From Clostridia bacterium (GTDB lineage: Bacteria > Bacillota > Clostridia > TANB77 > CAG-508): a DNA stretch of 45,775 nt. Location: the NCBI GenBank assembly GCA_017528375.1, contig JAFXOY010000124.1, positions 84,209 to 129,983 on the forward strand, given 5' to 3'. The notes under the pieces are model-generated. The model saw nothing but the letters and a program-made list of their open reading frames with translations. It was not told the origin of the DNA and did no database searches. The translations under genes and the position numbers were made by a program. Below, piece by piece: positions 4,147-34,397 of this stretch (its first letter is position 1; each line of letters opens with the position of its first letter).

Positions 4147-5964
4147 ATGTATAGTAGTAATATTTTCCCACCTATTTTTAATCAATCGTATATGCCAGCT
4201 TTTATTTATACAGGAACTTGTAGGGTTTATTTTGCTTTGTCTAAATATAATTCTATAAATTCTTTATATCATATTGATGCGAATACAGTTGGTGCCGTTC
4301 AAGTATCTGTTAGAAAACAAAAAACAAATATTTCTGCATTGAATCCTTCTGTCTATCCTAGTGATATTAAAATAACTACATTAGGAGTTGATAATACTAG
4401 AAGTGGAGATGATAAATATTATATTGAAATTTCTAATAGTGATATATAGAATGGTTTTAGTTTAAATTAGTATTATAAAGTGCAGATTAGATTTACTTAG
4501 GCGGGCGCAGATTCACCTCCAGTATCAGGAGGTATAGATAATTGGTTAAATGCTAACCTTAATTATTTTTCAGAGTGGTCTAGAGTTGTATTAATTAGAG
4601 GCATTAGTATGCCAGTTTTAGCCTTAAATGATTATCCAGATTTAAGTGAAACAATTGTAATACATAAGAACGATTTAGATATTGTTGGTTCAATTTCTTT
4701 TTCTAATAGTGCCGATTCAGAAACATTAAAAAGTTACAACATTCAGTTATATTGTAATAGTGTTTTATTAGAAGATAGTGGAGAGTTAAATTCTAATAAT
4801 AATTAGATTAATTATTCTATAAAAAGATGGTTATAGCCAGAATAGGTTTATCAAATAAAAGTTCAAATTACTACATAGAATTTATATTCTTGGGACTATT
4901 CTCAAAACATTACAGTTTAGGTTTCTTCAGAAGAATAGCCTGTTTTAAATGTTGATTTAAAATGTACTATGGATAATAGAACGGGTTGTATAAAAGTATT
5001 ATTAATAAATAAATAGAATAATAATGATAATATAGAAGATGAGTTTATTTTTCCTTAGGCTGACACAGAAGATTTTTTAAAGTCTTAGATATTAAAAATA
5101 TATTAGGAAGAGTCTTTTGCCATTATAAACAATAGTGAAAACATTTCTGAAGAAGATGATTTATCTCAAGGGGATAAAATTGTAATAAGAAGGTCTTCGA
5201 GTCAAAATGGTTTCACTATTTGGTAGAAAGTAGATGAATTTATAATTTCATAGTCTTCAACTTTCAACGCTTTATGGTATGATTATACAGTAACACCAGG
5301 GTTTTGGTATAAATATCAATTTATACATTATAATTCTTCTGATGTTAGAACGTCTTCATTAAGAATACCATATGGTTTAATGGTAAAAACAGAAGATATT
5401 TTTTTGATAGGGGATGGAAAACAACTTAATGTTCGTTTTGATCCTCAAATTACTAATTTTTCTTATAAAATTTCTGAAGGTCTTATAGAAACGATTGGAT
5501 CCAAGTATCCCTATATAAGAAGAAACGGTGCGGTAAACTATAGAACATTTTCTTTATCTGGAACAATATCATGTTTTATAGATTTAAAAAATAATTTAAT
5601 GCAAGCGTCTAAAGAAGATGTTTATGGAAGTTCTAAAGATTTATATGATGAATATAATACATAGAATAATATTACATTGTATATAGATGATATATATGAG
5701 AGATTCTTTAGATAGAAGGTTATAGATTTCTTATAGAAAAATAATATAAAACTATTTCGTTCTATGCCTTAGGGAAATTTATTAGTAAAATTAACAAATA
5801 TTAGTTTTACACCTAATACTCAGTTAAATAGACAAATTTATTCGTTTTCTTGTACAATAAATTAGATTGCAGAAGATAGCGTTGATAATTATAAAAAATA
5901 TAATATTTTTAATATTAATAAAGTATAGTTTAATGTTATCAGTTCACAAGAAAGTGGTGATTAA
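4147..5964 (+). CDS. Tail/baseplate structural protein
   Basis: 605 residues read through about 21 in-frame TAG codons, the densest long gene in the window. No enzymatic motif is seen. The C-terminal half (from about residue 410) has features shared with phage tail proteins: an IGDGKQLNVRF start and the KLFRSMPQGNLLVKL segment. In that type of protein the TAG position is usually Glu or Gln, supporting Gln. RBS AAAGGAGGAA precedes the ATG. The stop TAA is 2 nt before the next start, so the two are translationally coupled. Exact position in the virion is not known. Confidence 0.65.
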
Positions 5965-5966
5965 TT

Positions 5967-8084
5967 ATGAAAAATAGATATGCTTATTTAAATGACCAAG
6001 ATTTTCTTGTTGAAATTTCTAATTTGCAAATTGCTACTTTTTTTATAAAAATTAATTTATTAAACTGGTAGGAGAAAATAATAGAGCAGATAGAAGGAAA
6101 AGCTACTCAAGCAAATGTCTATCTTGATGCTAACAGTCTTATAAGAAGAACTGCTAATATAAGCTTAATATTATAGGAAGAAGATAAGGTAAATTTGCTA
6201 TCTTTAAATAAAAAGGTAAGCATAGAAATTGGATATGAAAACGTTACTGATAAATATAAATAGTTTCCTATTTTATGGTTTCCATTAGGGGTTTATGTAA
6301 TTACAAATAAATCTCTTACACAATCTTTAGATAATAATATTGTTTCATTAGAATTAAAAGATAAAATGGTGTTATTAAATGGTGAGTGCGGAGGCACCCT
6401 TCCAGCCTCGGTTGTTTTTGATAACGCCGAAACAATAGATTAGAATGGAAATGTTATTATAACAAGACCAACTATATATCAGATAATTAGAGAGTTAGTA
6501 AATCATTTTGGTAATTAGCAGCTTGGTAAAATTATTATTTCTGATTTAGATATAAGAATTAAGCAGGTTATGAAATGGACAAGTACCTCTCCTTTATATT
6601 TTCTATAGAAAAATGGACAATATTATATGACAATAGATGCTGATGATTATGTTAGTAAGATTGAAGACGGATATACAGATGTTGAAGGTTCTCCTTTTTA
6701 GTATGGTGAAAATGTTGGTTTTATTTTTACTGATTTTACATATCCTGGATCTTTAATAGGAAAACCTGGAGATAGTGTTGTAGATATTTTAGAAACAATC
6801 AAAAATACTTTGGGTAACTATGAATTTTTCTATGATTTAGATGGTAATTTTGTTTTTCAATAGATTAAAAACTATTTAAATAATTCACAGGTAAAATATA
6901 TTTTAGACAGTATGAATAATAATCAACTGGTTCCAGATTATTTATCTGCAACAGGAGAAAGCTATTTTAAAAATTTAAATAATGGAAAAGCTGTTTTTAG
7001 TTTTAAATAGAATAACAATTTAATTTCATCTTATACCAATCAACCAAACATGAACAATATAAAAAATGATTTTGTTATTTGGGGAATTAGAACAGGAACA
7101 GATGGTTATGAAATTCCTATAAGGTATCATTTGGTTATTGATTAGAAACCTAGTATTGGTAATACATATAAAGTTTTTAAATATGTTGATTTAAATGACC
7201 AGTTTTCAGAAAGATGGTATGCTCCGCTTGTATTTGATAGTATTAATGATTTTCCTGAAACAGGTGTTTATGGAGTATTTTATTTAGCAAATAATAATAA
7301 TACTATATATACATGGAAATTAGAAAATAATTTAAATCAGTATGTTGAAATAAATGCAAGTATTGAAAATGTAACAACAAAAGATTGGAGAACTTAGTTA
7401 TATTTTCAAGGTCTTTCAGCATAGCCATATGGAGAAGAAACTAATTTTTATTATAGCTAGCTGCTTTATGAGTGGCCCAGGTTATATAATATTTTACCAG
7501 ATTATGTTTAGAACGGCGTTGTAAAAAATGATAGTGGTTTTAAAGACTTCGTAACAAAAAATCCAAGCGGAATTAATTATTATTTAGATTTTCTTGATCC
7601 AAGAGGAAATGATAAACTTGAAAGATTCTCTGTTAATAATATTGGTAGGAGGTCTAAAATTTAGAATGATGAAAAAGATACTAATTGTGTATTTTAGACA
7701 TGGGTTCCTGATATAATTTTAATTAAAATTGATACATTACAAGAGTCAGAAATGAGCAAGATGAGAGAGGAATGTGTTAGAAGAAGCCAAAATTATTATC
7801 AGGTTCCAGAAGATATATATAATAGTCTTGCTATTGGAGATGGATTATTTTCTTGTTATGAACGAATAAAACAAACAATACAAGAATATGCTTGTTTTAA
7901 TGAGAATATATCAATTCAAACTTTACCATTATATTTCTTAGATGTAAATACTTGTATTGAAGTATAGAATAGCTCAAATGCCATAGAAGGTAATTATATG
8001 ATAAAATCAATGTCATTAAATTTAAGTAATAGCGGAATGGGAACAATGATTATCAATGCATTAAGACAGCTTGAGAAAATTTAA
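5967..8084 (+). CDS. Large tail/baseplate protein
   Basis: 705 residues with about 17 in-frame TAGs. Starts MKNRYAYLNDQDF. A recognisable segment is KDKMVLLNGECGGTLPAS near residue 135, a motif I associate with large tail/baseplate proteins in phages of Clostridia (from memory, not checked). The rest is beta-rich and Asn/Tyr-rich, without enzymatic motifs. It follows the preceding structural gene with no gap and is followed by small virion-type genes. Function as baseplate or tail-tip component is inferred from context. Confidence 0.6.
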
Positions 8085-15272: not shown

Positions 15273-16487
15273 TTATTGATATTTCATTAGATATGTAGGT
15301 GAAACACATTTAAATGATCTAGTTCCGTCAGGAGAGCGGAATACAATTCCTTCTTTCATCTCTCCATCAATCTTAGAAGCTTCGCTATCTACATACTCAC
15401 GCAACTCATCAATAGTATCAGGTAACACATATTGGGGATTTAAAATTGGTACACATGGAATACCTAATGGAATGAGTTTATCATACATCGCTACACTATT
15501 CCAACGTCCAGTATGTGACATAATTAAATTAAATGCAGCAAACTCATGGTTATTTAATCCATAGTTACGGTTCTGAATACCTGATCCATATGTTTCACCT
15601 TGAATAGTAACCCATTCTGCTTCGGGGTATGCCAGTAATAAAAACTCAAGAACCGTTTCCACATCATACTTATCAGCCATTTCCGTGTATACATTGGTTT
15701 CATAAAAGCATTTCTTGTCTGGTTTATCGAATACTACATTACGTGAACATACTAAAAACTCATTCTTTTTAAATCCATGTCCTCTTTTCATGGTGAAAGT
15801 TGTAGAAGTACCGTCAATTTTTTCGGTAGCAATCCACTCTGACTTATCACTTAAAACCCAAAGCATATTTTCTACTCGCTCTTCGTCTGTTTTTACAACA
15901 TAAGAAGGCCAAGAGGATCTCTTATCTCGTTTCTTTCCATAGAATAAGAAAAGTAATTTTTTACCCCACATACGTTTCATTAACCAACGATACGGCTGAC
16001 GAGAAAAAAGTTTCCCATGTCTCTGTGCCATTCGCTTATACTTATCTGCGGGCGCTGCTTTACGCTTATTATCTCCAGGTTCAGCGTAGGTTACACCGAG
16101 GTCCGCAGTTAAAAATTCGCCTTCTGCATAACTTTTACCTTTAATATGAAGATATTCAGTTCCATCACCATCTACGTAATATTCTCCGTTAAAATTCTGT
16201 GCAGACATTAAAAGTCCCTGACTTAATGACTTGCACATCTTTTGGGTCTTAACTTTATAATGTTTCTTAGCAAGAAACTCCATATTAGTAAAAGGTTCTA
16301 CTTCGGGTAACTTTGAATCAATTTCAAAATACACCGCCAAATCACCAGTATGAAATTCATTTTTCCCTACGACAATTGTCCAACCACCTACATGAGCAAG
16401 TTCAACCCTATCATATCCTTCAATTGGAGTAATATTATCAATTTTTACTACATACGCAAGTTCACGTACACCGTTTGAATTTAGCAC
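15273..16487 (-). CDS. RNA ligase, DraRnl/Rnl5-like
   Basis: 404 residues. The N-terminal OB-like domain (RELAYVVKIDNITPIEGYDRVELA...GGWTIVV, residues 8-40) precedes the adenylyltransferase domain, the order of the Deinococcus-type RNA ligase (DraRnl, Rnl5). Nucleotidyl Lys223 lies in EKIDGTS; QGETYG, EGIVFRS (~384) and SFKCVSPTYLMKYQ at the end give motifs IIIa, IV and V. It seals nicks in RNA with ATP. Start is GTG with AGGAGGTGC; it overlaps the upstream gene by 7 nt. No TAG in 404 codons. With the kinase at 12696-13172 it could repair tRNAs cut by host anticodon nucleases. Confidence 0.88.
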   Translation of the reverse strand: MLNSNGVRELAYVVKIDNITPIEGYDRVELAHVGGWTIVVGKNEFHTGDLAVYFEIDSKLPEVEPFTNMEFLAKKHYKVKTQKMCKSLSQGLLMSAQNFNGEYYVDGDGTEYLHIKGKSYAEGEFLTADLGVTYAEPGDNKRKAAPADKYKRMAQRHGKLFSRQPYRWLMKRMWGKKLLFLFYGKKRDKRSSWPSYVVKTDEERVENMLWVLSDKSEWIATEKIDGTSTTFTMKRGHGFKKNEFLVCSRNVVFDKPDKKCFYETNVYTEMADKYDVETVLEFLLLAYPEAEWVTIQGETYGSGIQNRNYGLNNHEFAAFNLIMSHTGRWNSVAMYDKLIPLGIPCVPILNPQYVLPDTIDELREYVDSEASKIDGEMKEGIVFRSPDGTRSFKCVSPTYLMKYQ

Positions 16488-26596: not shown

Positions 26597-28081
26597 TTAT
26601 TTGATATTTTTATATCTATCTGAACAGATGGTTTCTAAGCAAAGCTCCCATCCAGTCTTTCCTGTAATTACCTGTTTAAAGATAATGGGAGACGCACCAG
26701 ATACAAAAGAGACGCTAGGTCCTTTATCCAAGATAGTATTATTTCTCGCATTGACATTCCAATAAACGAGTCTTGGAAACTCTAATCCGTATGTTTCCCA
26801 TTTCTTTCTTACTGTTTCCATCTCTGTTAAACCATATCCCCTGGAGCAAGCATAGTCAATTTCCATATCAGAAATGACAACAATAGTCTTAGGAATATCT
26901 TCTTTCTTTACTCCCTTTTTCATTGCAATCTTAAACAAAAGGTCAAAGGTTGCAACTAAATTTGTATTATCACACAAATTTGTCTGATAAATGCGGCGGA
27001 CCTTGTCTACGAAATCCACACCACTGGTTTCAATCAGCTGGGGTCTGGATGCAAAGCTGATATAGTGGTTCTTAAATGGACCACCAAGGCGTTCCGCACA
27101 GTATAATCCTAATCCAATGGCAATGTCAATTGGATCGACAGCTCCCTGTCCCCAGGTCATAGATCCAGAGGTATCTACGACACACATCATGCTGCATTTT
27201 TCACCATTTAAATAATCAGGAAGATTTTCCCAATATTTATTAATCATGGCTCTATCAGTTTCATCTGTGCTTCTATGATAATATGAAAGAGCCTTTGTTA
27301 CTACTTCATAAGGATATAATACACCCGCATTAACTTTAGTTGTTTTATCCTTTGCAAATGCTTTATATTTTTCAGCAATAATATCTCGTCTAGCAAAGGC
27401 ATTTTTATAAATTAAACCAGCACGAGATGGAATTTTAGAGAAATCAATTTCATCCCACCTGTTAGCAGACATAAGTTTTTCAAGAACCTTAATATGCTCA
27501 CGCAGTCTTGAAAGAGTTTTTCTGTAAGCAGATGCAGAAATACCAAGATATTCTCTAGTTCTTTTAGCGAGCATCTTTGTTTCTTTAGAAGAAGCGTTTT
27601 CACTTTTAAGCCATTTTGCGAGTAAGCTAATTCCTGTTTTATCTGTACCGTTCATAACGTCAGACATATCTCTTTCCAGCTGAAGTTTGACTAATTCAAA
27701 CATTTCACCTTCAAGTGGTGTGTCTACAAGAATATAAAGGTCATCCCACCTACCATACTCTGAAATATATTCAAGATTTCTGCGAACCGCTTCAGAATGG
27801 TTTTCAGCAAGCCACTTCATACAGACGCGGAAAAAGCGTCTTTCACCCTGGCCCCCGCGACAATCACGAATATAAAACAGGCATTTAAGAGCAAGCTCTT
27901 CATTCTCTTCGAAGGCTTTTTTAAACAATAAAATGCAATCTTCATCGCTGCGCTGTCTATACGCTGCCCCAAATGCGAACAAATCATATACCTGGTTCAT
28001 GGTAGACTTATAGGCAAGCCCGCCATTTTCAGTATATTTATAGTTATTTTCTTCTTTAAGTTGATTCATAAATGTATTCAT
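26597..28081 (-). CDS. DUF2828/vWA protein, Ro60 (TROVE)-related
   Basis: 494 residues. Helical-repeat N-terminal part with the DUF2828 signatures YDLFAFGAAYR, YIRDCRGGQGER (~70-81), EYGRWDDLYIL (~108), ISLLAKWLKSE (~151) and RWDEIDFSKIPSRAG (~208). A von Willebrand A domain follows, with MIDAS DTSGSM at 303-308. The arrangement of helical ring plus vWA is that of TROVE/Ro60 proteins, which bind misfolded RNAs and tRNA-like Y RNAs. No TAG in 494 codons. It converges on the fibre cluster and adjoins the tRNA region. RNA binding here is inferred from family relation and neighbours. Confidence 0.78.
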   Translation of the reverse strand: MNTFMNQLKEENNYKYTENGGLAYKSTMNQVYDLFAFGAAYRQRSDEDCILLFKKAFEENEELALKCLFYIRDCRGGQGERRFFRVCMKWLAENHSEAVRRNLEYISEYGRWDDLYILVDTPLEGEMFELVKLQLERDMSDVMNGTDKTGISLLAKWLKSENASSKETKMLAKRTREYLGISASAYRKTLSRLREHIKVLEKLMSANRWDEIDFSKIPSRAGLIYKNAFARRDIIAEKYKAFAKDKTTKVNAGVLYPYEVVTKALSYYHRSTDETDRAMINKYWENLPDYLNGEKCSMMCVVDTSGSMTWGQGAVDPIDIAIGLGLYCAERLGGPFKNHYISFASRPQLIETSGVDFVDKVRRIYQTNLCDNTNLVATFDLLFKIAMKKGVKKEDIPKTIVVISDMEIDYACSRGYGLTEMETVRKKWETYGLEFPRLVYWNVNARNNTILDKGPSVSFVSGASPIIFKQVITGKTGWELCLETICSDRYKNIK

Positions 28082-28152: not shown

Positions 28153-28602
28153 TTATATTTCATTAATAGCTTCAAATTGTCCACCAATCTTTGCAGCACA
28201 ATCATCACACCAGGGACAAATCCATCCAAGTGAAATTTTAGTAGCTGGTTTACCACATCCTATGCAAGTTTTTTCCGAAATATCTTCATATTTTCTTATA
28301 ATATCGTGTACTTTACAGCCTACAGGAATACCATTATCATAGATACGAAGATAGCCAAACTTTTCTTTGATTTGTACAATAATATATTTATCAGCATAAT
28401 CAAATTCATCTAAAGCCTCTTTTAGCTCTTGACAAAGTTGTTCTCCGAAAGCAATGCGCCAACCATCGGGTATGCTATCAAACCAGGTATAATCATAATC
28501 ATAATCATCTGGTACATAATATGAATGTGTATCATAATCATATTCTTTAAAAGCTAGAAATGGATATTTATCAACAAGCTCTTTATTTTTAATATTAATC
28601 AT
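28153..28602 (-). CDS. Zinc-ribbon phage protein
   Basis: 149 residues. N-terminal acidic/Tyr-rich part, a middle QIKEKFGYLRIYDNG and a C-terminal zinc ribbon with CIGCG...WICPWCDDC. No enzyme motif. Start at 28602 after AAGGAGATAAAAGGAT. The leader (28600-28638) is nearly identical to that of the DUF2828 gene downstream, suggesting co-regulation. Confidence 0.65.
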   Translation of the reverse strand: MINIKNKELVDKYPFLAFKEYDYDTHSYYVPDDYDYDYTWFDSIPDGWRIAFGEQLCQELKEALDEFDYADKYIIVQIKEKFGYLRIYDNGIPVGCKVHDIIRKYEDISEKTCIGCGKPATKISLGWICPWCDDCAAKIGGQFEAINEI

Positions 28603-28638
28603 ATCCTTTTATCTCCTTACTTTTGTCAAAATATTTTA
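28600..28638 (-). repeat. Leader repeat copy 2
   Basis: See 28079-28117; 38 of 39 positions are identical. Confidence 0.7.
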
Positions 28639-28644
28639 AAACAA

Positions 28645-28701
28645 CAAGAGGCGTCTTTTCTCCCTAAGAATGTTTAAAGTATAAATTGCTGTTTGCCTCT
28701 T
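28645..28701 (-). ncRNA. RNA element E1 (ACAGCAA family)
   Basis: Closing stem AGAGGC/GCCTCT brackets AACAGCAATTTATAC, the sequence shared with elements at 29684, 29875 and 32247. Shortest member. It lies just downstream of tRNA-Asn and in the leader of the gene ending at 28153. Confidence 0.5.
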
Positions 28702-28705
28702 TGAG

Positions 28706-28777
28706 CGGGAATACTAGGATTCGAACCTAGATAATACGGTTAACAGCCGTAGGTCTTAACCATTGGACGATATTCCC
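28706..28777 (-). tRNA. tRNA-Asn (GTT)
   Basis: 72 nt. Acceptor GGGAATA/TATTCCC, D arm, anticodon stem TACGG/CCGTA with loop CTGTTAA, T loop TTCGAAT, discriminator G. No encoded CCA. Confidence 0.92.
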
Positions 28778-28932
28778 ATGTGAAAGTTTTTTATTTCTTA
28801 ACGGATAACTTTCAACCGAAGCGATTAAAGGATCACGCTCATACTTATCGACTGACTTGGCGAGGGAACATACCTCATTTTATGCATTTGTTTGCTTTTG
28901 CCTCGGTTACCAACCTTAACGCCAGTCTTCCA
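28778..28932 (-). other. Unexplained spacer between tRNA-Gln and tRNA-Asn
   Basis: 155 nt without a complete tRNA. It has a GGTT-GGT-AACC hairpin and short stretches that look protein-like in two frames (for example VDKYERDPLIASVESYP), so it may be the remnant of a small gene or an unrecognised RNA. Confidence 0.3.
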
Positions 28933-29004
28933 CAGGCCCAGCTGGATTCGAACCAACAAATGCAGGAATCAAAATCCTGTGTCTTACCATTTGACTATGA
29001 GCCT
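28933..29004 (-). tRNA. tRNA-Gln (TTG)
   Basis: 72 nt. Acceptor AGGCTCA/TGGGCCT, anticodon stem CAGGA/TCCTG with loop TTTTGAT, T arm TTGG-TTCGAAT-CCAG, discriminator G. It reads CAA, and possibly CAG by wobble. It is distinct from the CTA-anticodon tRNA at 30122. Confidence 0.88.
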
Positions 29005-29032
29005 AAAATGGGGGATGAAACCCCCGCTTTTA
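29005..29032 (-). terminator. G/C hairpin upstream of tRNA-Gln
   Basis: GGGGG and CCCCC around a 6-nt loop with A/T flanks. Could be a terminator or a processing hairpin in the tRNA transcript. Confidence 0.55.
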
Positions 29033-29045
29033 AATAAATAATTTT

Positions 29046-29161
29046 CTATGGCGGTCGTGCCGAAACCCTCCCATATAAACACGACTTATTCCAGTTTTAC
29101 TAGTACCTGGCGAGATTTATTTTCGTATCAGGATTTGCAAAATCATCCTCCCCAACCATAG
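29046..29161 (-). ncRNA. Structured RNA closed by a 7-bp acceptor-like stem
   Basis: 116 nt whose ends pair (CTATGGT with GCCATAG). Inside are a GATTT-TGC-AAATC hairpin, a CCTG...CAGG stem and GTCGTG...CACGAC. The cloverleaf-like plan is not a normal tRNA: no standard D or T loop is seen. Candidate novel RNA; a Y-RNA-like partner of the DUF2828 protein is possible but unproven. Confidence 0.4.
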
Positions 29162-29179
29162 ATTTTATATATTATTTAT

Positions 29180-29494
29180 TTAAAAATTTAAGAAATCATG
29201 TACCAGGTTTAAGAAATTAAGACTAGGAGTTTCCTCGTCTGATACCTGATAAGAAGTATGGAAATATCCATAATCTTTGGTAAATTCTTTAAGCAACTTA
29301 ATTGCTTTCTGTTGTGCTACATTTGCTTCCTTTAAAGCATTTTCAACTTCTTTAGCTCTAATCGCCCTTGCTGCCTTCTTTGCTTTTTCGGCAGCTTCTT
29401 TTTCTTCATTAGCTTTCTTAACCTTGTTTTCTGCTTCAATCAAAGCTTTCTCGGTGTCAAAAAGCTGTCTACATACATCACTATAAAATCTCAT
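29180..29494 (-). CDS. Small coiled-coil protein
   Basis: 104 residues, mostly one Lys/Glu/Ala-rich coiled coil (LIEAENKVKKANEEKEAAEK near residue 18). RBS AAGGAATTAAC. The C-terminus (LNFLNLVHDFLNF) is amphipathic. Lies between tRNA genes. Function unknown. Confidence 0.55.
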   Translation of the reverse strand: MRFYSDVCRQLFDTEKALIEAENKVKKANEEKEAAEKAKKAARAIRAKEVENALKEANVAQQKAIKLLKEFTKDYGYFHTSYQVSDEETPSLNFLNLVHDFLNF

Positions 29495-29590
29495 TTTGTT
29501 AATTCCTTTCTTAACAAATTATTTTTGGCAGGGGAGTCGGCGCCCAGACTACCTAAAACCAAGTTCCACCCTTTTGATTTAGGATTTTAA
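29495..29590 (-). other. Structured leader of the coiled-coil gene
   Basis: Two hairpins: CCTAAA...TTTAGG and AGTC-TGGGCGCC-GACT. They lie between the tRNA-like gene at 29591 and the RBS of the gene at 29494. Could be a processing or regulatory leader; no known riboswitch is recognised. Confidence 0.35.
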
Positions 29591-29675
29591 TAAGGATGGT
29601 AGGAATTGCACCTACGACCCGGCTCTCGTTGTTGTTTTCCGTGTACACGCCACTCTACTACTGAGATACATCCTT
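29591..29675 (-). tRNA. tRNA-like gene with expanded anticodon region
   Basis: 85 nt. Acceptor AAGGATG/CATCCTT, D arm CTC-AGTAGTA-GAG and T arm GTAGG-TGCAATT-CCTAC are intact. About 38 nt replace the normal 23 between D and T arms, and no regular anticodon stem-loop can be drawn. Either a class II tRNA that I cannot resolve or a tRNA with an insertion. Confidence 0.5.
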
Positions 29676-29683
29676 ATAATATC

Positions 29684-29803
29684 AAGACAATTTTTTTTCG
29701 CGCTCTACCTATTGAGCTATATACGAATCATCTCGTATAATCAGATTTGAACTGATAACATCGGGTTTACAAGACCATTTAATAATATTGCTGTTATTGT
29801 CTT
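29684..29803 (-). ncRNA. RNA element E2 containing a permuted tRNA precursor
   Basis: Leader AAGACAAT pairs perfectly with trailer ATTGTCTT. The leader then has AACAGCAAT, shared with the other E elements. Between them lie the 3' half, a 6-nt linker and the 5' half of tRNA-Thr. Transcription starts just upstream from the promoter at 29817-29845. Confidence 0.75.
29699..29776 (-). tRNA. Circularly permuted tRNA-Thr (TGT)
   Basis: On the minus strand the 3' half (29776-29733) precedes the 5' half (29726-29699), separated by a 6-nt linker. Joined as 5' half + 3' half they form a perfect tRNA. The acceptor is TCGTATA/TATACGA, the D stem GCTC/GAGC, the anticodon stem CGGGT/ACCCG with loop CTTGTAA, and the T stem ATCAG/CTGAT with loop TTCAAAT. 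The break is between positions 28 and 29, in the anticodon stem. Both the acceptor and the anticodon stem are complete only across the permutation, so chance is very unlikely. It needs circularisation or ligation plus cleavage of the linker. Confidence 0.85.
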
Positions 29804-29816
29804 TTCTATTATTTAT

Positions 29817-29845
29817 ATTATATAATAATTTTTATTAAAAATCAA
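29817..29845 (-). promoter_or_regulatory. Promoter in front of the permuted tRNA
   Basis: TTGATT, 17 bp, TATAAT on the minus strand. The RNA would start about 10 nt before the AAGACAAT arm. Confidence 0.8.
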
Positions 29846-29874
29846 ATTAAAACCTTATATGGCGGACACCGCCC

Positions 29875-30005
29875 AAGACACGTTTTTAACCACTCTTTAC
29901 GGGGGAAATAGTTGAGACCCCTCCTTAAAAAGTAAAACAATATCACATTTTAAAAATTATCTATTTTTTTATACTTGTCAAAGTTATATTTGCTGTACGT
30001 GTCTT
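29875..30005 (-). ncRNA. RNA element E3 (ACAGCAA family)
   Basis: Leader AAGACACGT pairs perfectly (9 bp) with trailer ACGTGTCTT; ACAGCAAATATAAC follows the first arm. Inside is a GGGG...CCCC hairpin after TTTTTAAGGA. A GGCGG-TGT-CCGCC hairpin lies directly downstream (29858-29870). A possible promoter (29954-29981) lies within it. Confidence 0.55.
29954..29981 (-). promoter_or_regulatory. Possible promoter inside element E3
   Basis: TTGACA, 16 bp, TAATTT. Weaker -10 than the family consensus. Confidence 0.4.
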
Positions 30006-30014
30006 ATTACTAAA

Positions 30015-30056
30015 TACCCCCAGCCGGATTCGAACCGGCGACGTCTGATTTAAATT
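30015..30056 (-). tRNA. tRNA 3' portion without recognisable 5' half
   Basis: T arm GCCGG-TTCGAAT-CCGGC, acceptor strand TGGGGGT and discriminator A are present, with an ATCAG half of an anticodon stem. The matching 5' strand ACCCCCA is absent on either side. Partial gene, or one half of a split tRNA. Confidence 0.6.
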
Positions 30057-30121
30057 AACTACCATTCTTTTTCAGTGTATTTATTTATCTCACTTTTTTT
30101 CTTTTGACCTCAAAATTTTCA

Positions 30122-30212
30122 TCGACGGTAGGGGATTCGAACCCCTGACCTTCCTCACGGAAGGGATGCCGGTTTTAGAGACCGGGGACTTAAACCGCTT
30201 GTCAAACCGCCG
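30122..30212 (-). tRNA. Amber-decoding tRNA (anticodon CTA), Gln-like with long variable arm
   Basis: 91 nt. Acceptor CGGCGGT/ACCGTCG (one G-T), D arm GAC-AAGCGGTTTAA-GTC, anticodon stem CCGGT/ACCGG with loop CTCTAAA, T arm AGGGG-TTCGAAT-CCCCT, discriminator A. The D arm (AAGCGGT) and the CCGGT...ACCGGCAT anticodon region closely resemble bacterial tRNA-Gln. The variable region carries an extra CCTTCC-GTGA-GGAAGG helix, as in class II tRNAs. This is the tRNA expected to read the many in-frame TAGs. Gln charging is inferred from the body and from TAG replacing Glu/Gln positions. Confidence 0.88.
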
Positions 30213-30265
30213 AATTATTATTTATTTAAACAGCTTAGACCGCTTGCCGATGGGGACTTTTTATA

Positions 30266-30499
30266 TTACGATGCCGTTTCTGTTTTAACGACCGCATCCT
30301 TTTTAGCTTTTCTACTTTCTTCTTCTTTTGCTTTTGATGCTTCCATTCTAGCAAACATTCTTTTGCTATGAGCATATTCAGTTAGCCTATTGACTTTATT
30401 TTTAAATTTTTCATACTCAATAGCTTCTTTAACAGAATCTGTTCTTGTTGCTTTTCTGTTCTTTTTTATAATTTCTTTTGTTGTAACTTCTTTTTTCAT
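30266..30499 (-). CDS. Small basic helical protein
   Basis: 77 residues, MKKEVTTKEIIKKNRKATRT..., highly Lys-rich, helical, ending DAVVKTETAS. RBS AAAGGAAGGTAAA. Could bind RNA; no family recognised. Lies between the amber tRNA and tRNA-Thr. Confidence 0.5.
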   Translation of the reverse strand: MKKEVTTKEIIKKNRKATRTDSVKEAIEYEKFKNKVNRLTEYAHSKRMFARMEASKAKEEESRKAKKDAVVKTETAS

Positions 30500-30523
30500 A
30501 TTTTACCTTCCTTTTTTATTTTA

Positions 30524-30596
30524 AGCCTCCGCTCGGGTATGATCCGAGATTACTAGGTTACAAATCTAGGGTTTTATCCGTTTAAACTATAGAGGC
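30524..30596 (-). tRNA. tRNA-Thr (TGT), conventional copy
   Basis: 73 nt. Acceptor GCCTCTA/CGGAGGC with an A-C mismatch at the last pair, D stem GTTT/AAAC, anticodon stem CTAGA/CCTAG (inner A-C mismatch), loop TTTGTAA, T stem CTCGG/CCGAG. Same anticodon as the permuted tRNA at 29699-29776, so Thr(TGT) is present twice, here with defects. Confidence 0.75.
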
Positions 30597-30600
30597 AAAA

Positions 30601-31127
30601 TGGATCATCTAGGATTCGAACCTAGGACCGTCCGGTTCATATCTAGCTCACTTACCTATTTAAAACCTCCTTAGCAATATAATCTTTGGCAAAACTAATT
30701 CCTTTAATTTGTCCATTTCGTGTGGGAATTAAACGTAAATTTTTTTCAGTTTTCCCACATTCAGAGACTGGAATTAAATAACATTCATTGTTATACCAAG
30801 TACAAAAATAATCAATATTATCATTTTGATAATGGGCATGAGTTACTTTTCCATTTACAAAATGACTAGAACAAGTTGCAAAACTTAATTTTTCTCCATC
30901 AGAAGTACATGATTTTACTTGAATTTTTAAAAGCTGTTTACCAGTATCTAAAATAAAATCATATCTTACAGGATTTTCTGGCGTAGATACTGTATATCCT
31001 AACTCTAAAAAATAAGTTTTACATTTTAATTCGGTAATAATACCTTTAAGATTAGTATCCATAAATATTTTAGGTATGTTATTGCTTGATATGAGCCGGA
31101 TGCTCTAACCAACTGAGCTAGTGATCC
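30601..31127 (-). tRNA. tRNA-Met (CAT) interrupted in the anticodon loop
   Basis: 5' exon 31127-31091 ends in the anticodon (…CCGGCTCAT), 3' exon 30637-30601 begins AACCGGA. Joined, they give acceptor GGATCAC/ATGATCC (one mismatch), D stem, anticodon stem TCCGG/CCGGA with loop CTCATAA, T stem CTAGG/CCTAG. The 453-nt insert (30638-31090) starts after U36 and ends in G, the exon and intron ends expected for a group I intron. It is almost filled by the endonuclease gene 30652-31062, so space for a ribozyme core is lacking. The insert ends extend the anticodon helix: TCATATC against GATATGA. Confidence 0.85.
30652..31062 (-). CDS. PD-(D/E)XK homing endonuclease, I-Ssp6803I-like, inside tRNA-Met
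   Basis: 136 residues matching the small PD-(D/E)XK homing nucleases: GIITELKCKTYFLELGYTV, then PVRYDFILD (catalytic Asp), KIQVKSC (catalytic Lys) and a C-terminal DNA-contacting region. In the cyanobacterium Synechocystis, I-Ssp6803I is encoded in a tRNA-fMet group I intron and cuts the pseudopalindromic GGCTCATAACC anticodon sequence. The uninterrupted form of the present tRNA would have exactly CCGGCTCATAACCGG. The gene leaves only 27 and 15 nt of non-coding insert. No TAG. Homing into tRNA-Met anticodons is therefore strongly suggested. Confidence 0.85.
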   Translation of the reverse strand: MDTNLKGIITELKCKTYFLELGYTVSTPENPVRYDFILDTGKQLLKIQVKSCTSDGEKLSFATCSSHFVNGKVTHAHYQNDNIDYFCTWYNNECYLIPVSECGKTEKNLRLIPTRNGQIKGISFAKDYIAKEVLNR

Positions 31128-31136
31128 GTTATATTA

Positions 31137-31194
31137 AGCCGATATTCGGACTCAGACTGAAAATCCGCCGCACTACCAATTATGCTATATCGGC
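31137..31194 (-). tRNA. Truncated tRNA-Glu-like gene without a T arm
   Basis: 58 nt. Perfect acceptor GCCGATA/TATCGGC and a normal D arm, but only one further arm, CGGA-TTTTCAGTCTGAG-TCCG, containing a TTC anticodon context. The T arm is missing. Either a decayed gene or a minimal tRNA. Confidence 0.55.
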
Positions 31195-31203
31195 ACATAA
31201 ACG

Positions 31204-31292
31204 AGGAAGGAGAGGGATTTGAACCCTCGAACGGTCCTATCCGTTAATGATTTTCAAGACCATCTCCATAAACCAAACTCGGACACCCTTCC
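31204..31292 (-). tRNA. tRNA-Ser (TGA)
   Basis: 89 nt class II. Acceptor GGAAGGG/TCCTTCC, anticodon stem ATGGT/ATCAT with loop CTTGAAA, long variable arm ACGG...CCGT, T loop TTCAAAT. Confidence 0.88.
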
Positions 31293-31319
31293 AAAATTCT
31301 CTGTTTTTAGACACTTTTT

Positions 31320-31450
31320 GGTACAGAGGAGTAGAAACCTCACCACCGCCGTCGTCGCTCACGAGACCACTACATTAAGCACGGAATGATTACCGTTCGT
31401 GCGCTGGACCTCAACCAGCCGGTCATATCCTGTCAATTCAGGATTTATGT
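31320..31450 (-). ncRNA. G/C-rich structured spacer between tRNA-Glu and tRNA-Ser
   Basis: Consecutive hairpins ATCCTG-AATTGA-CAGGAT, GCTGG-TTGAGGT-CCAGC and GCACG...CGTGC, then a stretch ending TTTCTACTCCTC that resembles a T arm. GC content is higher than in the surroundings. No regular tRNA can be drawn. Confidence 0.4.
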
Positions 31451-31458
31451 GGTTGAAA

Positions 31459-31531
31459 TGACTCGTGGCGGAATTGAACCGACCGTTACGGGATTGAAAG
31501 CCCCGTGAATTTGCCACTATTCGAACGAGCC
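31459..31531 (-). tRNA. tRNA-Glu (TTC)
   Basis: 73 nt. Acceptor GGCTCGT/ACGAGTC, anticodon stem CGGGG/TCCCG with loop CTTTCAA, T loop TTCAATT, discriminator A. Confidence 0.9.
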
Positions 31532-31536
31532 ATAAA

Positions 31537-31607
31537 TAGAAAATGTCGGATTTGAACCGCTCCCCGTGTTCCCAAAACACGTATGCTACCATTACACCAC
31601 ATTCTCT
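31537..31607 (-). tRNA. tRNA-Pro (TGG)
   Basis: 71 nt. Acceptor AGAGAAT/ATTTTCT, anticodon stem CGTGT/ACACG with loop TTTGGGA, T loop TTCAAAT. Confidence 0.88.
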
Positions 31608-31618
31608 ATACGAAAGAG

Positions 31619-32215
31619 TTAACCTTCGGTTTCTAAAACAACATATTCAACTCTATTCCACATATGATAATCACGCAATGCTTCAATTAATTGCCGCAAA
31701 ATAAATGATTCATATTCTTTTGTATTATAATCAGGATATGCATAATACATATAATCTGAAGCGTTTGGTTTTGTATATTCATAACCCTCATCATCTTTTA
31801 TGGGTTGATTTTTACCAAACATCATTTCATGCTGTAACTTTGCTGCATAAATTTCAGGACTAAGAATATCGTAGAAACCTTCAAAATTATTATATTTATC
31901 ATCTTCATATGCTTGAACATCCTTAATTAAGAAATAACCTGTCTTGATATAACTTCCTACAGGCAAGTCCTTTTCAGAAAGATATTTTACATCAAGGTGT
32001 TTAACTTTATCCCAATCTTCATATTCAAATTCTTTACGAAGTTCTTCTGAGCTTTCTTCTTCAGAGACAGTATAAAACTCTTCATGTAAATCCGAAGCAA
32101 AAGATCTGGAACGACTAATCATCGGTTTTAACTTACCATTTGCATTATAAGGACCCCATGGATAAATTTTTCCATCTTTTTTATATCCGATATAATAATT
32201 ATAATAATAACTCAT
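31619..32215 (-). CDS. Tyr-rich phage protein of unknown function
   Basis: 198 residues starting MSYYYNYYIGYKKDGKIYP. Acidic middle (EEESSEELRKEFEYEDWDKV) and aromatic-rich C-terminus. Start at 32215 after AAAGGAGGGCGCT; an upstream ATG at 32248 lacks an RBS. No TAG and no enzyme motif. Its leader holds RNA element E4 (32247-32369), right behind a consensus promoter, so expression may be controlled by that RNA. Confidence 0.65.
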   Translation of the reverse strand: MSYYYNYYIGYKKDGKIYPWGPYNANGKLKPMISRSRSFASDLHEEFYTVSEEESSEELRKEFEYEDWDKVKHLDVKYLSEKDLPVGSYIKTGYFLIKDVQAYEDDKYNNFEGFYDILSPEIYAAKLQHEMMFGKNQPIKDDEGYEYTKPNASDYMYYAYPDYNTKEYESFILRQLIEALRDYHMWNRVEYVVLETEG

Positions 32216-32246
32216 AGCGCCCTCCTTTGTATTATATATTTTTATC

Positions 32247-32369
32247 AAGACAGGGGAATTTTTCTAACCGTGAATCCGAGAGCTTATTAAAAATTCCTTA
32301 AAATTTCACTACTTTAATTAAATTCTTCGCCTATTATCAGAAAAAGTTAATTTGCTGTTACTCTGTCTT
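32247..32369 (-). ncRNA. RNA element E4 (ACAGCAA family) in a gene leader
   Basis: AAGACAG pairs with CTGTCTT; AACAGCAAATTAAC follows the first arm. Inside is a 9-bp hairpin GGAATTTTT/AAAAATTCC preceded by TTTTAA. Position between promoter and RBS makes a riboswitch-like role conceivable. Confidence 0.55.
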
Positions 32370-32383
32370 TCTTTCTTATTTAT

Positions 32384-32412
32384 ATTATATAATAATTTTT
32401 TATAAAAATCAA
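32384..32412 (-). promoter_or_regulatory. Promoter, family consensus
   Basis: TTGATT, 17 bp, TATAAT, upstream of element E4. Confidence 0.8.
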
Positions 32413-32419
32413 TTAATTA

Positions 32420-33212
32420 TTATTGATTCCTAAGTTTTTCAACCTCTCTAGTTATTTCAGGCTGATATTCTTCCATTATCTCATCCCAATCACCAATGTA
32501 TTCATAAACATTCTCTGCCGTTGGATCTTCAATAGCTTCAACGTATTTTTTTAACATTCCAAAATCTTTTTCATAGCAATGGAATGAATTTGCTCTATGA
32601 GTATAAGTACCCATTTCAATTCCTAATGCATCTGCAATTCTTTTTTGCAAGAGAATAAGAGCAAACATATTCATAAAATTAGCTTTACAAGCATCATTGC
32701 TACGGAATAAAACTTTGCAATGAAGTTTATCTTCTCGTATAAAATATTGTATATGCTGAAGACATGCGGGATCCCCGTCGAATGCATCAATGGATGGGTC
32801 CCTTACTAGCATAACCGCCCGCCGCGAAGATGGATTGCGTTTAAGTTCATTAATAACAAAATCTATTTGATTTAATGAAATTTGATTAGGTGCTTTTATT
32901 GTATTGTCAATTGGATAATTTACAATTCTATCGTGATAAGTATAAGTCCAATTTCCTTTATCAATTTCAAAATCAAGGATGCCATCTAACACTTCTTGGC
33001 GATACTGTTCTAATTCTCTTGGTCCACCTATAAACAATTTACTAATCATAGGTTCAGTAAGTGGCTGTGTAATAATAATAGTGGCTGAAATTTCTTTTTG
33101 TGTAGTATTCCAGTCTGCACAATCTGTAATTTCTCCAAATCTCTATAAATTAATCAAAGCCATATGATAAGCCTATGGTAAAGTTCTTTCTTGAATAAAA
33201 AATTCTCTCATC
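32420..33212 (-). CDS. Thymidylate synthase (ThyA family), +1 frameshift near the start
   Basis: Body of the ThyA family: SKLFIGGPRELEQYRQ, the active-site region DPACLQHIQYF with the probable catalytic Cys, FRSNDACKANFMN and YTHRANSFHCYEKDF (dUMP contacts). It makes dTMP, or a hydroxymethyl analogue, from dUMP/dCMP. The RBS-borne start at 33212 encodes MREFFIQERT. The frame must then gain +1 at an A4 run on the plus strand (33180-33183) to continue LPQAYHMALINLQRFGE..., with two TAGs. One extra base in the homopolymer, real or artefactual, would explain it. As read, the intact part begins only at an internal ATG (33164 or 33049). Confidence 0.75.
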
Positions 33213-33244
33213 TTTCTTTTCTCCTGTTGTTAATGTTTGAAAGC

Positions 33245-33314
33245 AGGAAGGGAAGGAATCGAACCCTCATCTTGGCTTTTGGAGAGCCTTATACTACCAT
33301 TGTACTACCGACCT
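33245..33314 (-). tRNA. tRNA-Trp (CCA)
   Basis: 70 nt. Anticodon loop CTCCAAA, T arm with TTCGATT, discriminator G as usual for Trp. The acceptor AGGTCGG/CCTTCCT has two mismatched middle pairs, so function is uncertain. Confidence 0.72.
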
Positions 33315-33320
33315 ATAAAA

Positions 33321-33404
33321 TGCGGCTGGAGGGAATCGAACCCTCACTGTATCTCTACAACGGGATTTTAAGTCCCGCGCGTCTGCCTATTCCGCCACAG
33401 CCGC
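33321..33404 (-). tRNA. tRNA-Leu (TAA)
   Basis: 84 nt class II. Acceptor GCGGCTG/CAGCCGC, anticodon stem CGGGA/TCCCG with loop CTTAAAA, long variable arm, T loop TTCGATT, discriminator A. Confidence 0.9.
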
Positions 33405-33432
33405 TCATTCGATGCCGTTTATTGTATAACGG

Positions 33433-33521
33433 AAGGTAAGGGATAAAAATGCAGGAAACAAATATTAAATTATTCATATTGAAAATTATATTCTTTGTTT
33501 CCTGCTTTAAATATTACCTTA
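33433..33521 (-). terminator. Long hairpin after the NUMOD1 gene
   Basis: GCAGGAAACAAA (33451) pairs perfectly with TTTGTTTCCTGC (33494), with outer pairing AAGGTAA/TTACCTT and a ~31-nt loop. Likely terminator or processing signal between the gene ending at 33526 and tRNA-Leu. Confidence 0.6.
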
Positions 33522-33525
33522 TTTT

Positions 33526-33891
33526 TTACTTAGAAGATTTTACATATTCATCATACTCATCTTTGAAATACCAAAGATAACCATAAGCACGGTGAGTCTT
33601 AGTTCTTCCGTTCAAGGCATCTCCAATACCAGATTTACCCTCTTTGTTGATAGCTGCCAGAGCTTCTTTCTGAGTTGCATATTCTCCAACAATCTTTCCA
33701 GTTTCTTCATCAATCTGAAGAACGCCACTCTTATTTGGACTCTTGCGTTTCTTAGCCGCTGCCGCCTCAGCTTCTTCAATCATAGCAAGAACTGCATCCA
33801 ATACTTCAAGTGTCTGATCCTGAATACCAGGATCTAATTCCGCTGAATTTTCAAAATAGAAAATTAATCCTTCTACTGTTTTCTTATCCAT
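33526..33891 (-). CDS. NUMOD1-type DNA-binding protein
   Basis: 121 residues. N-terminal helical part and a basic linker (AAAAKKRKSPNKSG), then a NUMOD1 domain: VLQIDEETGKIVGEYATQKE, KSGIGDALNGRTKTHRAYGYLWYF. NUMOD1 repeats normally lie at the C-terminus of GIY-YIG or HNH homing endonucleases and recognise DNA. Here there is no nuclease domain. It could be a remnant, a regulator, or a partner of the GIY-YIG protein at 36586-37482. RBS AAAGGAGTATTT. Confidence 0.7.
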   Translation of the reverse strand: MDKKTVEGLIFYFENSAELDPGIQDQTLEVLDAVLAMIEEAEAAAAKKRKSPNKSGVLQIDEETGKIVGEYATQKEALAAINKEGKSGIGDALNGRTKTHRAYGYLWYFKDEYDEYVKSSK

Positions 33892-33931
33892 ATAAAAATA
33901 CTCCTTTTATCTCATTAAATTAATTACTTAA

Positions 33932-33991
33932 TTCTCAGGTAAGGAATCGGACCTTACTTATATTGCTTGCATTACCAATATGCTACTGAGA
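33932..33991 (-). tRNA. tRNA-like gene lacking the anticodon arm
   Basis: 60 nt. Acceptor TCTCAGT/CCTGAGA, D arm GCAT-ATTGGTA-ATGC and T arm TAAGG-TCCGATT-CCTTA are intact, but only about 12 nt lie between D and T arms. No anticodon stem-loop exists. Confidence 0.55.
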
Positions 33992-34049
33992 CACCTTATT
34001 TATTTACAGAAAGGAAGGAAAAAAGTGATTTAATAAACAATCACATTAA

Positions 34050-34121
34050 TTGCGGAGACGGGACTTGAACCCGTACCCTTCACGTTATGGGCGTGCTAAG
34101 CTGCCGTTGCTCTACTCCGCT
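34050..34121 (-). tRNA. Initiator-like tRNA-Met (CAT)
   Basis: 72 nt. Anticodon loop CCCATAA in a CACG/CGTG stem, T stem ACGGG/CCCGT. Pairs 2-7 of the acceptor (GCGGAG/CTCCGC) are perfect, but 1:72 is an A-A mismatch. A 1:72 mismatch and the GAGCAACGGCAGCTT/CATAAC..GAAGG pattern are hallmarks of bacterial initiator tRNA. Position 33 is C instead of T. Confidence 0.75.
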
Positions 34122-34138
34122 ATGTTCTCCGATTTTGT

Positions 34139-34190
34139 TAGAGGAGAATCGGAAAACTCCTATATGACTAGCCCATTGGTCTATACCTCT
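34139..34190 (-). tRNA. tRNA-like gene lacking the anticodon arm (second)
   Basis: 52 nt. Ends AGAGG/CCTCT pair, D stem GAC/GTC with GGG in the loop, then directly GGAG-TTTTCCGATT-CTCC as T arm. No anticodon arm. Confidence 0.45.
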
Positions 34191-34204
34191 CTTTCTGAGA
34201 GTTA

Positions 34205-34397
34205 GAATAAAAAATAAGTATCTTCAACCCTTTCCACGGCTCCCATACTAACTATTATAGCCGAAATTTTTTGCGCTAATGGTACTGGTGTATCATCTCA
34301 CTCCACTACGATGACTGGGTTCTTCCAGCGGTCTCTCAAAGAAGAGTTGCTGCAGACTCTTCTAAGTTACGATTGATATTCTTTTCTATTTCTATTA
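34205..34397 (-). ncRNA. ~190-nt structured RNA with its own promoter
   Basis: Starts behind the promoter at 34400-34428. Hairpins GAAGAGT-CTGCAGCA-ACTCTTC, CTGG-AAGAAC-CCAG, TCATC...GATGA and CGGCT...AGCCG follow, and it ends with AGTAT...ATACT and a T-run (34207-34217) that can serve as terminator. The first loop contains CAGCAA, as in the E elements. No open reading frame. No known family is recognised. Confidence 0.65.

What the first reader, a model, noticed from the sequence alone, without database searches (positions are those of the whole stretch)
29684..29845. Circularly permuted tRNA-Thr in a phage tRNA array
Seen: promoter, then AAGACAAT arm, then the 3' half of a tRNA, a 6-nt linker, the 5' half and a complementary ATTGTCTT arm. 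Rejoined, all four stems are perfect, and two of them (acceptor, anticodon) exist only across the permutation. Known: permuted tRNA genes are described in red and green algae and some archaea, where processing uses a bulge-helix-bulge site and a tRNA ligase. Inference: the outer helix aligns the ends, and the phage kinase and ligase could close the ring. I know of no phage example.
Basis: partly seen in the sequence, partly recalled or inferred. Interest (0 to 1): 0.95.

Follow-up and report, generated by a model that had tools for sequence, protein, structure and literature searches.

The report
Phage Y RNA with permuted tRNA
A phage-like genome encodes a small RNA whose middle is a complete tRNA written in swapped order, and it looks like one of a family of phage Y RNAs that go with a Ro-like protein rather than a tRNA gene waiting to be spliced.

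Summary
In detail: on the minus strand, 29803-29684, an 8-bp outer stem encloses a tRNA-Thr(UGU) in permuted order. ARAGORN accepts it rejoined at 28/29 but not linear. The stem plus ACAGCAA module recurs three more times in the window and dozens of times in other phages, on the strand of a DUF2828/DUF7788 protein named Ro-like in mycobacteriophages. Rfam's Y RNA model YrlA, itself in permuted-tRNA order, matches full length but below threshold (29.7 vs 69 bits). I conclude: a phage Y-type RNA with a tRNA-mimic head that, unusually, keeps the anticodon arm. Sixteen such composites were found, ten permuted and six in normal order with the Y hairpin inserted at the same 28/29 point. Anticodons differ between 92%-identical bodies, and five of 16 pair Tyr or Ser anticodons with short variable loops, which argues against decoding tRNAs, though not decisively. 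Protein binding and function are inferred, not shown; Ro homology is likely, not proven.

The parts
29684..29803 (-). E1: Y-type RNA with permuted tRNA-Thr(UGU) head (the finding)
29796..29803 (-). 5' arm of outer (Y) stem AAGACAAT
   Evidence: pairs 8/8 with 29684-29691
29684..29691 (-). 3' arm of outer (Y) stem ATTGTCTT
29788..29794 (-). conserved ACAGCAA motif at the inner side of the Y stem
   Evidence: shared by E1-E4 and other phages
29762..29776 (-). anticodon hairpin GGT-CTTGTAA-ACCCG (positions 29-43)
   Evidence: same form in 16 elements
29740..29756 (-). T-arm
29733..29739 (-). acceptor 3' strand TATACGA
   Evidence: 7/7 with 29720-29726
29727..29732 (-). GATGAT loop capping the acceptor stem
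29720..29726 (-). acceptor 5' strand TCGTATA
29702..29717 (-). D-arm
29699..29700 (-). CG, positions 27-28, able to pair with 42-43 across the permutation
29817..29845 (-). promoter-like TTGATT-17-TATAAT upstream of E1
   Evidence: not above shuffles, but near-identical upstream of E3
29875..30005 (-). E2: second Y-type element, no tRNA head recognised
32247..32369 (-). E3: third Y-type element, no tRNA head recognised
28646..28701 (-). E4: fourth Y-type element, short hairpin
26597..28081 (-). Ro-like RNA-binding protein, 494 aa (phrog_850; DUF2828 + DUF7788, weak vWA), inferred partner
15273..16487 (-). RNA ligase (phrog_968, PF09414 + PHA02142 OB domain)
30524..30596 (-). ordinary tRNA-Thr(UGU), making E1 redundant as a decoder

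Best explanation
E1 is a phage-encoded Y-type noncoding RNA. Shown from sequence: its ends pair as a stem next to a conserved ACAGCAA, and the enclosed head is a full tRNA mimic in T-arm, acceptor, D-arm order with an acceptor capped by a loop and an anticodon arm that can close across the 28/29 break. Inferred: the stem plus ACAGCAA module is bound by the phage's own Ro-like protein encoded 1.6 kb downstream, and the tRNA-like head is the effector part that draws a tRNA-binding enzyme to the particle. The likeliest targets are host anticodon nucleases (the head as a decoy), host PNPase, or RNA-repair enzymes, as proposed for bacterial Rsr/YrlA particles. It works as transcribed; no splicing or ring closure is needed.
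For: YrlA model full length 1-114 at 29785-29676, 29.7 bits, E 0.0021 in a 5.8-kb scan; the YrlA consensus runs T-arm, acceptor hairpin, UA, D-arm. The module ACAGCAA + 7-bp stem: 70 in window + 39 viral loci vs mean 6.2, max 12 for 30 scrambled motifs; 41 in 14 Ro-phage loci (14 of the 681 records, chosen by me to span hosts) vs mean 4.5, max 8. In those 14 loci 39 are on the Ro strand and 2 opposite; 0.33/kb within 3.5 kb of the gene vs 0.02/kb beyond; T4 tRNA region 0. Loci fetched by the RNA pattern alone: 21 of 42 new ones hold the Ro-like gene in the fetched DNA, 21 of 21 on the same strand, vs 7 of 119 loci from a looser pattern. 24 elements with permuted heads in 17 sources, with varied acceptor pair types (159 of 168 cells paired, swapped-partner mean 77.6; selection required most of these pairs). 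Ro-like annotation in mycobacteriophages. RtcB and an RNA ligase near the Ro-like gene in Listeria LP-048.
Against: E1 is below the YrlA gathering score (29.7 vs 69); no YrlA at gathering score in 7 named Ro-phage loci. Pfam TROVE does not match the window's genome; profile comparison with bacterial Rsr is modest (probability 57%, E 1.1e-4, clearest at the vWA motif), PDB sequence searches find no Ro60, and no structure could be predicted. By the strict rule KVP40 and CBB have no element within 6 kb and the faecal phage MT837221 only a variant seen by eye; 12 of 39 viral loci have none on the Ro strand; 21 of the 42 pattern-fetched loci show no Ro-like gene in the fetched DNA. The full anticodon arm is not explained by the Y reading alone. 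No binding or expression data.
Confidence: 0.76

Rival explanations
1. A true permuted (interrupted) tRNA gene: the Y stem holds the ends, nucleases trim to 28 and 29, the phage RNA ligase seals, and RNase P and 3' processing open the acceptor loop to give tRNA-Thr.
For: Rejoined cloverleaf perfect; 16 of 16 elements of this junction class rejoin into an ARAGORN tRNA; 6 of the 10 permuted ones encode ACCA, and one TCCA, after the acceptor 3' strand; an RNA ligase is present; normal-order versions also break at 28/29; the normal isoacceptor was not seen in the fetched stretch of 10 of 16. Short-armed normal tRNA-Leu genes (77-79 nt) occur in such phages, so a short-armed Leu(UAA) body (L165) is no misfit and anticodon change in a phage tRNA is not in itself odd.
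Against: Five of 16 have Tyr or Ser anticodons on bodies with a 4-7-nt variable loop, while the 13 normal tRNA-Tyr and tRNA-Ser genes are 82-93 nt long; anticodons differ (GAA/GUA; GUA/UAA) between 92%-identical elements; no bulge-helix-bulge in the fold; a normal Thr(UGU) is present; the junction insert is a module with its own family.
Confidence: 0.09
2. Two-piece tRNA: the acceptor loop is cut out as in permuted two-piece tmRNA, leaving two RNAs held by the acceptor and Y stems, with a CCA end that could be charged. It need not exclude Ro binding.
For: Encoded ACCA plus a short spacer in 6 of the 10 permuted 28/29 elements; E1's acceptor loop could be an RNase P site (inference).
Against: E1 itself encodes no CCA; 7 of 24 permuted heads have 3-nt loops; E1 shows no tmRNA match.
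Confidence: 0.07
3. A rearranged tRNA remnant without function.
For: The array holds other odd or broken tRNAs; a normal Thr(UGU) is present.
Against: All stems are perfect, the same junction recurs in other contigs, and stems and acceptors vary in pair type while staying paired.
Confidence: 0.04
4. A structured phage RNA unrelated to Ro, linked to the Ro-like gene only because both sit in tRNA arrays.
For: Many elements sit inside tRNA arrays; half of the pattern-fetched loci show no Ro-like gene in the fetched DNA; Ro homology rests on annotation and a modest profile match.
Against: In LeBron (no tRNA genes in the 41-kb region) and in 6ec, PC14 and LAh_6, with one, three and no annotated tRNAs in the stretch, elements lie right beside the Ro-like gene; density falls from 0.33 to 0.02 per kb away from it.
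Confidence: 0.15

Closest known systems
Bacterial Y RNA YrlA (Rfam RF02553), Ro60/Rsr partner
   Same: Outer stem from both ends; head in T-arm, capped acceptor, D-arm order; linkage to a Ro-type protein, with RtcB/RNA ligase near it in Listeria phage LP-048.
   Different: Below the Rfam score; an ACAGCAA module beside the stem, not seen in the YrlA consensus; several per phage with varied heads; a subset keeps a complete anticodon arm; the linked protein is DUF2828/DUF7788 rather than PF05731.
[quoted passage not shown]
   Same: 3' half precedes 5' half with a short linker between acceptor strands.
   Different: No bulge-helix-bulge in the predicted fold, a recurrent module at the junction, anticodons that drift or misfit, phages as carriers.
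Two-piece tmRNA (recalled)
   Same: Permuted tRNA-like domain with acceptor strands joined by a loop.
   Different: No tmRNA match for E1; anticodon arm present.

Membership tests
YrlA Y RNA (RF02553) | stem formed by the 5' and 3' ends | tested here: met
   8 bp in E1; 24 of 24 permuted elements have 6-7 of the first 7 paired, by selection
YrlA Y RNA (RF02553) | head in T-arm, acceptor hairpin, D-arm order | tested here: met
   alignment to the consensus
YrlA Y RNA (RF02553) | Rfam gathering score 69 bits | tested here: not met
   29.7 bits; best of four loci scanned 38.4; 0 at gathering in 7 named loci
YrlA Y RNA (RF02553) | Rsr (TROVE, PF05731) gene in the genome | tested here: not met
   0 in own genome, which may be incomplete; a Ro-like DUF2828/DUF7788 protein instead
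YrlA Y RNA (RF02553) | binding to the Ro protein and PNPase | not testable with these tools
   needs biochemistry
Ro60/Rsr protein (for 26597-28081) | RNA-binding domain plus vWA domain | tested here: inconclusive
   DUF2828 + DUF7788, VWA_2 below cut-off; hhalign to bacterial Rsr 57%, E 1.1e-4 with the DxSGSM motif aligned; no Ro60 in PDB sequence searches; no fold
Circularly permuted tRNA gene | 3' half before 5' half, perfect cloverleaf when rejoined | tested here: met
Circularly permuted tRNA gene | bulge-helix-bulge at the junction | tested here: not met
   forced tRNA-like fold shows an 8-bp stem with 7-nt and 19-nt single strands, no BHB (by eye)
Circularly permuted tRNA gene | mature rejoined tRNA | not testable with these tools
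   needs RNA from infected cells

The most novel reading that the evidence does not exclude
These phage arrays hold a working bridge between tRNA and Y RNA: one composite RNA (complete tRNA joined to a Ro-binding stem at 28/29) exists as two circular permutations, ended either at the tRNA acceptor or at the Y stem, and the Ro-like particle displays an intact anticodon loop as bait against host anticodon nucleases; losing the anticodon arm would give YrlA-type Y RNAs.
Probability: 0.3. Interest if true: 0.88.

Novelty: new variant of a known kind. Interest (0 to 1): 0.7.

Why it matters
It gives a testable RNA partner and binding module for a phage protein found in 681 of 50,697 phage records, among them laboratory phages such as Felix O1 and LeBron. 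It explains an apparent permuted phage tRNA without splicing, and shows Y-type RNAs with complete tRNA heads, including normal-order and permuted forms of one composite. That bears on how Y RNAs arose from tRNAs, on why phages carry tRNA arrays, and on the suggestion that YrlA may compete for an anticodon nuclease (PMC7790460, passage seen).

Tried and rejected
Considered and rejected or left open: (1) ring-closed tRNA maturation, see rivals. (3) A first motif scan without a fixed spacing was too loose; one search lists nested duplicates and a few likely false rows. (4) Four rows (L013:6892, L037:320, L043:24057, L016:17535) and one of the 17 rows (L146) were dropped by eye as false before counting; L065 matched both orders and was classed normal by eye. 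Of the 28 hits about half are ordinary tandem tRNAs. The five confidences are not exclusive and sum to more than 1. The papers that define bacterial Y RNAs (PMC4201824, PMC6047535, PMC10870794, PMC6281776) are not held, so phage Y RNAs may be described there. [quoted passage not shown] PMC7824862 (passages) says some jumbo phages have a TROVE protein, which in cells works with a tRNA-like partner; PMC8190616 (passage) lists one YrlA in mycobacterial prophages. In those listings (titles and abstract starts) and in the passages read I saw nothing on the ACAGCAA module or on permuted tRNA heads in phages.

Full report
What is there. The finding is on the minus strand. The unit at 29803-29684 is AAGACAAT, one base, ACAGCAA, an 11-nt AT-rich linker, then GGT-CTTGTAA-ACCCG, variable loop, T-arm, acceptor 3' strand, GATGAT, acceptor 5' strand, D-arm, GCG, an A-tract and ATTGTCTT. 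Joined at 28/29 it is a clean tRNA-Thr(UGU) for ARAGORN (117.2), and nothing is called in the linear gene. A looser rule for permuted tRNAs gave 4 hits in five mononucleotide shuffles of 574,638 nt on both strands, so a top-score hit in a 45.8-kb window is not chance.

First clue. At gathering score Rfam lists tRNAs in the window but nothing at this site. The permissive scan of 28500-34300 gives YrlA, the bacterial Y RNA, over its full length at 29785-29676 (29.7 bits, gathering 69, E 0.0021). The YrlA consensus line itself reads outer stem, T-arm, acceptor-like hairpin, UA, D-arm: Y RNAs of this type are permuted tRNA mimics. A review (PMC8394870, passages) describes YrlA as a basal stem that tethers the Ro-type protein and a domain resembling the D, T and acceptor arms.

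Second clue. The outer stem and ACAGCAA are not private to this unit. Three more elements lie on the same strand: 30005-29875, 32369-32247 and 28701-28646. The gene at 28081-26597, 1.6 kb downstream, is phrog_850 'RNA-binding protein' (E 5e-123) with Pfam DUF2828 and DUF7788. Its homologues are in 681 of 50,697 phage records and are annotated 'Ro-like RNA binding protein' in mycobacteriophages. Pfam TROVE itself has no match in the window's genome. A profile of 20 homologues aligned to three bacterial Rsr proteins gives probability 57%, E 1.1e-4, with the DxSGSM vWA motif aligned; PDB sequence searches find no Ro60. So Ro-like is likely but not proven here; no structure could be computed.

The association. 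A rule (7-bp stem ending 1-4 nt before ACAGCAA) finds 70 elements in the window and 39 viral loci, against a mean of 6.2 and maximum of 12 for 30 scrambled motifs, and 41 in 14 Ro-phage loci that I chose from the 681 records, against 4.5 and 8. In those loci 39 lie on the Ro strand and 2 on the other; density is 0.33 per kb within 3.5 kb of the gene and 0.02 beyond. Eleven of the 14 have at least one on the Ro strand: Felix O1, FADO, LeBron, 6ec, Porthos, LP-048, PC14, BcoS-136, LPCS28, phi1_175008 and LAh_6. KVP40 and CBB have none in the 6-kb flanks, and MT837221 only an ACAGCAG variant seen by eye. Among the viral loci 63 are on the Ro strand and 2 opposite, and 27 of 39 loci have one; the T4 tRNA region has none. 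The reverse test used the RNA pattern alone as bait: of 42 new loci 21 hold the Ro-like gene in the fetched DNA, all 21 on the same strand, against 7 of 119 loci from a looser pattern.

The heads. Permuted tRNA heads recur: 24 elements in the window, nine viral loci and seven named phages (four rows dropped by eye). Pair types in the acceptor stem vary widely while staying paired (159 of 168 cells; swapped partners 77.6 on average), but elements were chosen for mostly paired acceptors, so the variety is the evidence, not the percentage. Seven of 24 have a 3-nt acceptor loop. Other elements carry a tRNA in normal order (for example L005:5938-6051, L008:2157-2268) or no recognised tRNA.

The special subclass. 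E1 keeps the anticodon arm. All 16 rejoin into an ARAGORN tRNA, and 11 of the 15 loci other than the window hold the Ro-like gene in the fetched DNA. The two sets are circular permutations of one composite. Against a decoding role: elements 92% identical carry GAA versus GUA (L016, L115) and GUA versus UAA (L104, L165); five of 16 (L104, L115, L143, L175, L065) combine Tyr or Ser anticodons with a 4-7-nt variable loop, while the 13 normal tRNA-Tyr and tRNA-Ser genes are 82-93 nt long. The normal isoacceptor is present in 6 of 16 cases, the window included. For a maturation role: in the other 10 it was not seen in the fetched stretch, which is often short; 6 of the 10 permuted members encode ACCA after the acceptor strand and one TCCA; and short-armed normal tRNA-Leu genes (77-79 nt) in such phages show that the Leu(UAA) case (L165) is no misfit.

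Mechanism. Shown: the anatomy and the linkage. Inferred: the stem and ACAGCAA are the Ro-like binding site; the head recruits or baits a tRNA-handling enzyme. In Deinococcus the Y RNA tethers Rsr to PNPase, and a competitive inhibitor role against an anticodon nuclease has been suggested for YrlA (PMC7790460, passages). A head with a real anticodon loop fits the bait idea best; I give that about 0.3. LeBron's Ro-like protein, RNA ligase and kinase are each toxic on overexpression (PMC13148394, passages), and LP-048 has RtcB and an RNA ligase near its Ro-like gene.

Verdict. Observation confirmed; interpretation as a ring-closed tRNA gene unlikely; best filed as 'works like a Y RNA', with YrlA membership not granted because the Rfam score and TROVE features were tested and not met. 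New variant of a known kind.

Noticed in passing
window 30601-31127, minus: A tRNA-Met(CAT) split in its anticodon loop by an insert that holds a PD-(D/E)XK endonuclease ORF (30652-31062), with little room for a full group I intron.
   Followed up: partly
window 4147-8084, plus; 30121-30213, minus: TAG seems to be read through: two adjacent ORFs hold 21 and 17 TAG codons, and the array has a CTA-anticodon tRNA.
   Followed up: partly
window 31137-31194, minus: A 58-nt tRNA-like match with hardly any T-arm (Rfam 32.5 bits).
   Followed up: no
window 29591-29675, minus: A tRNA-like match with an odd anticodon/variable region, not called by ARAGORN (Rfam 37.3 bits).
   Followed up: no
window about 30013-30057, minus: An orphan tRNA 3' half next to element E2; its 5' half was not looked for.
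   Followed up: no
window about 29042-29160, minus: A tRNA-Cys(GCA)-like stretch with extra sequence in its arms, seen by eye only.
   Followed up: no
L016, L029, L041 (several sites): tRNA-Leu genes of only 77-79 nt, shorter than the 82-93 nt of the tRNA-Tyr and tRNA-Ser genes listed with them.
   Followed up: no
L029:16824-17417: A ROOL RNA (324 bits) in the same stretch as Y-type elements and the Ro-like gene.
   Followed up: no
L044 (MT837221), about 700-1900: An RtcB-like frame, recognised by eye, between Y-type elements and the Ro-like gene.
   Followed up: no
L012:1032-1307 and L047:2118-2468: tmRNA genes in two of the Ro-like phage stretches.
   Followed up: no
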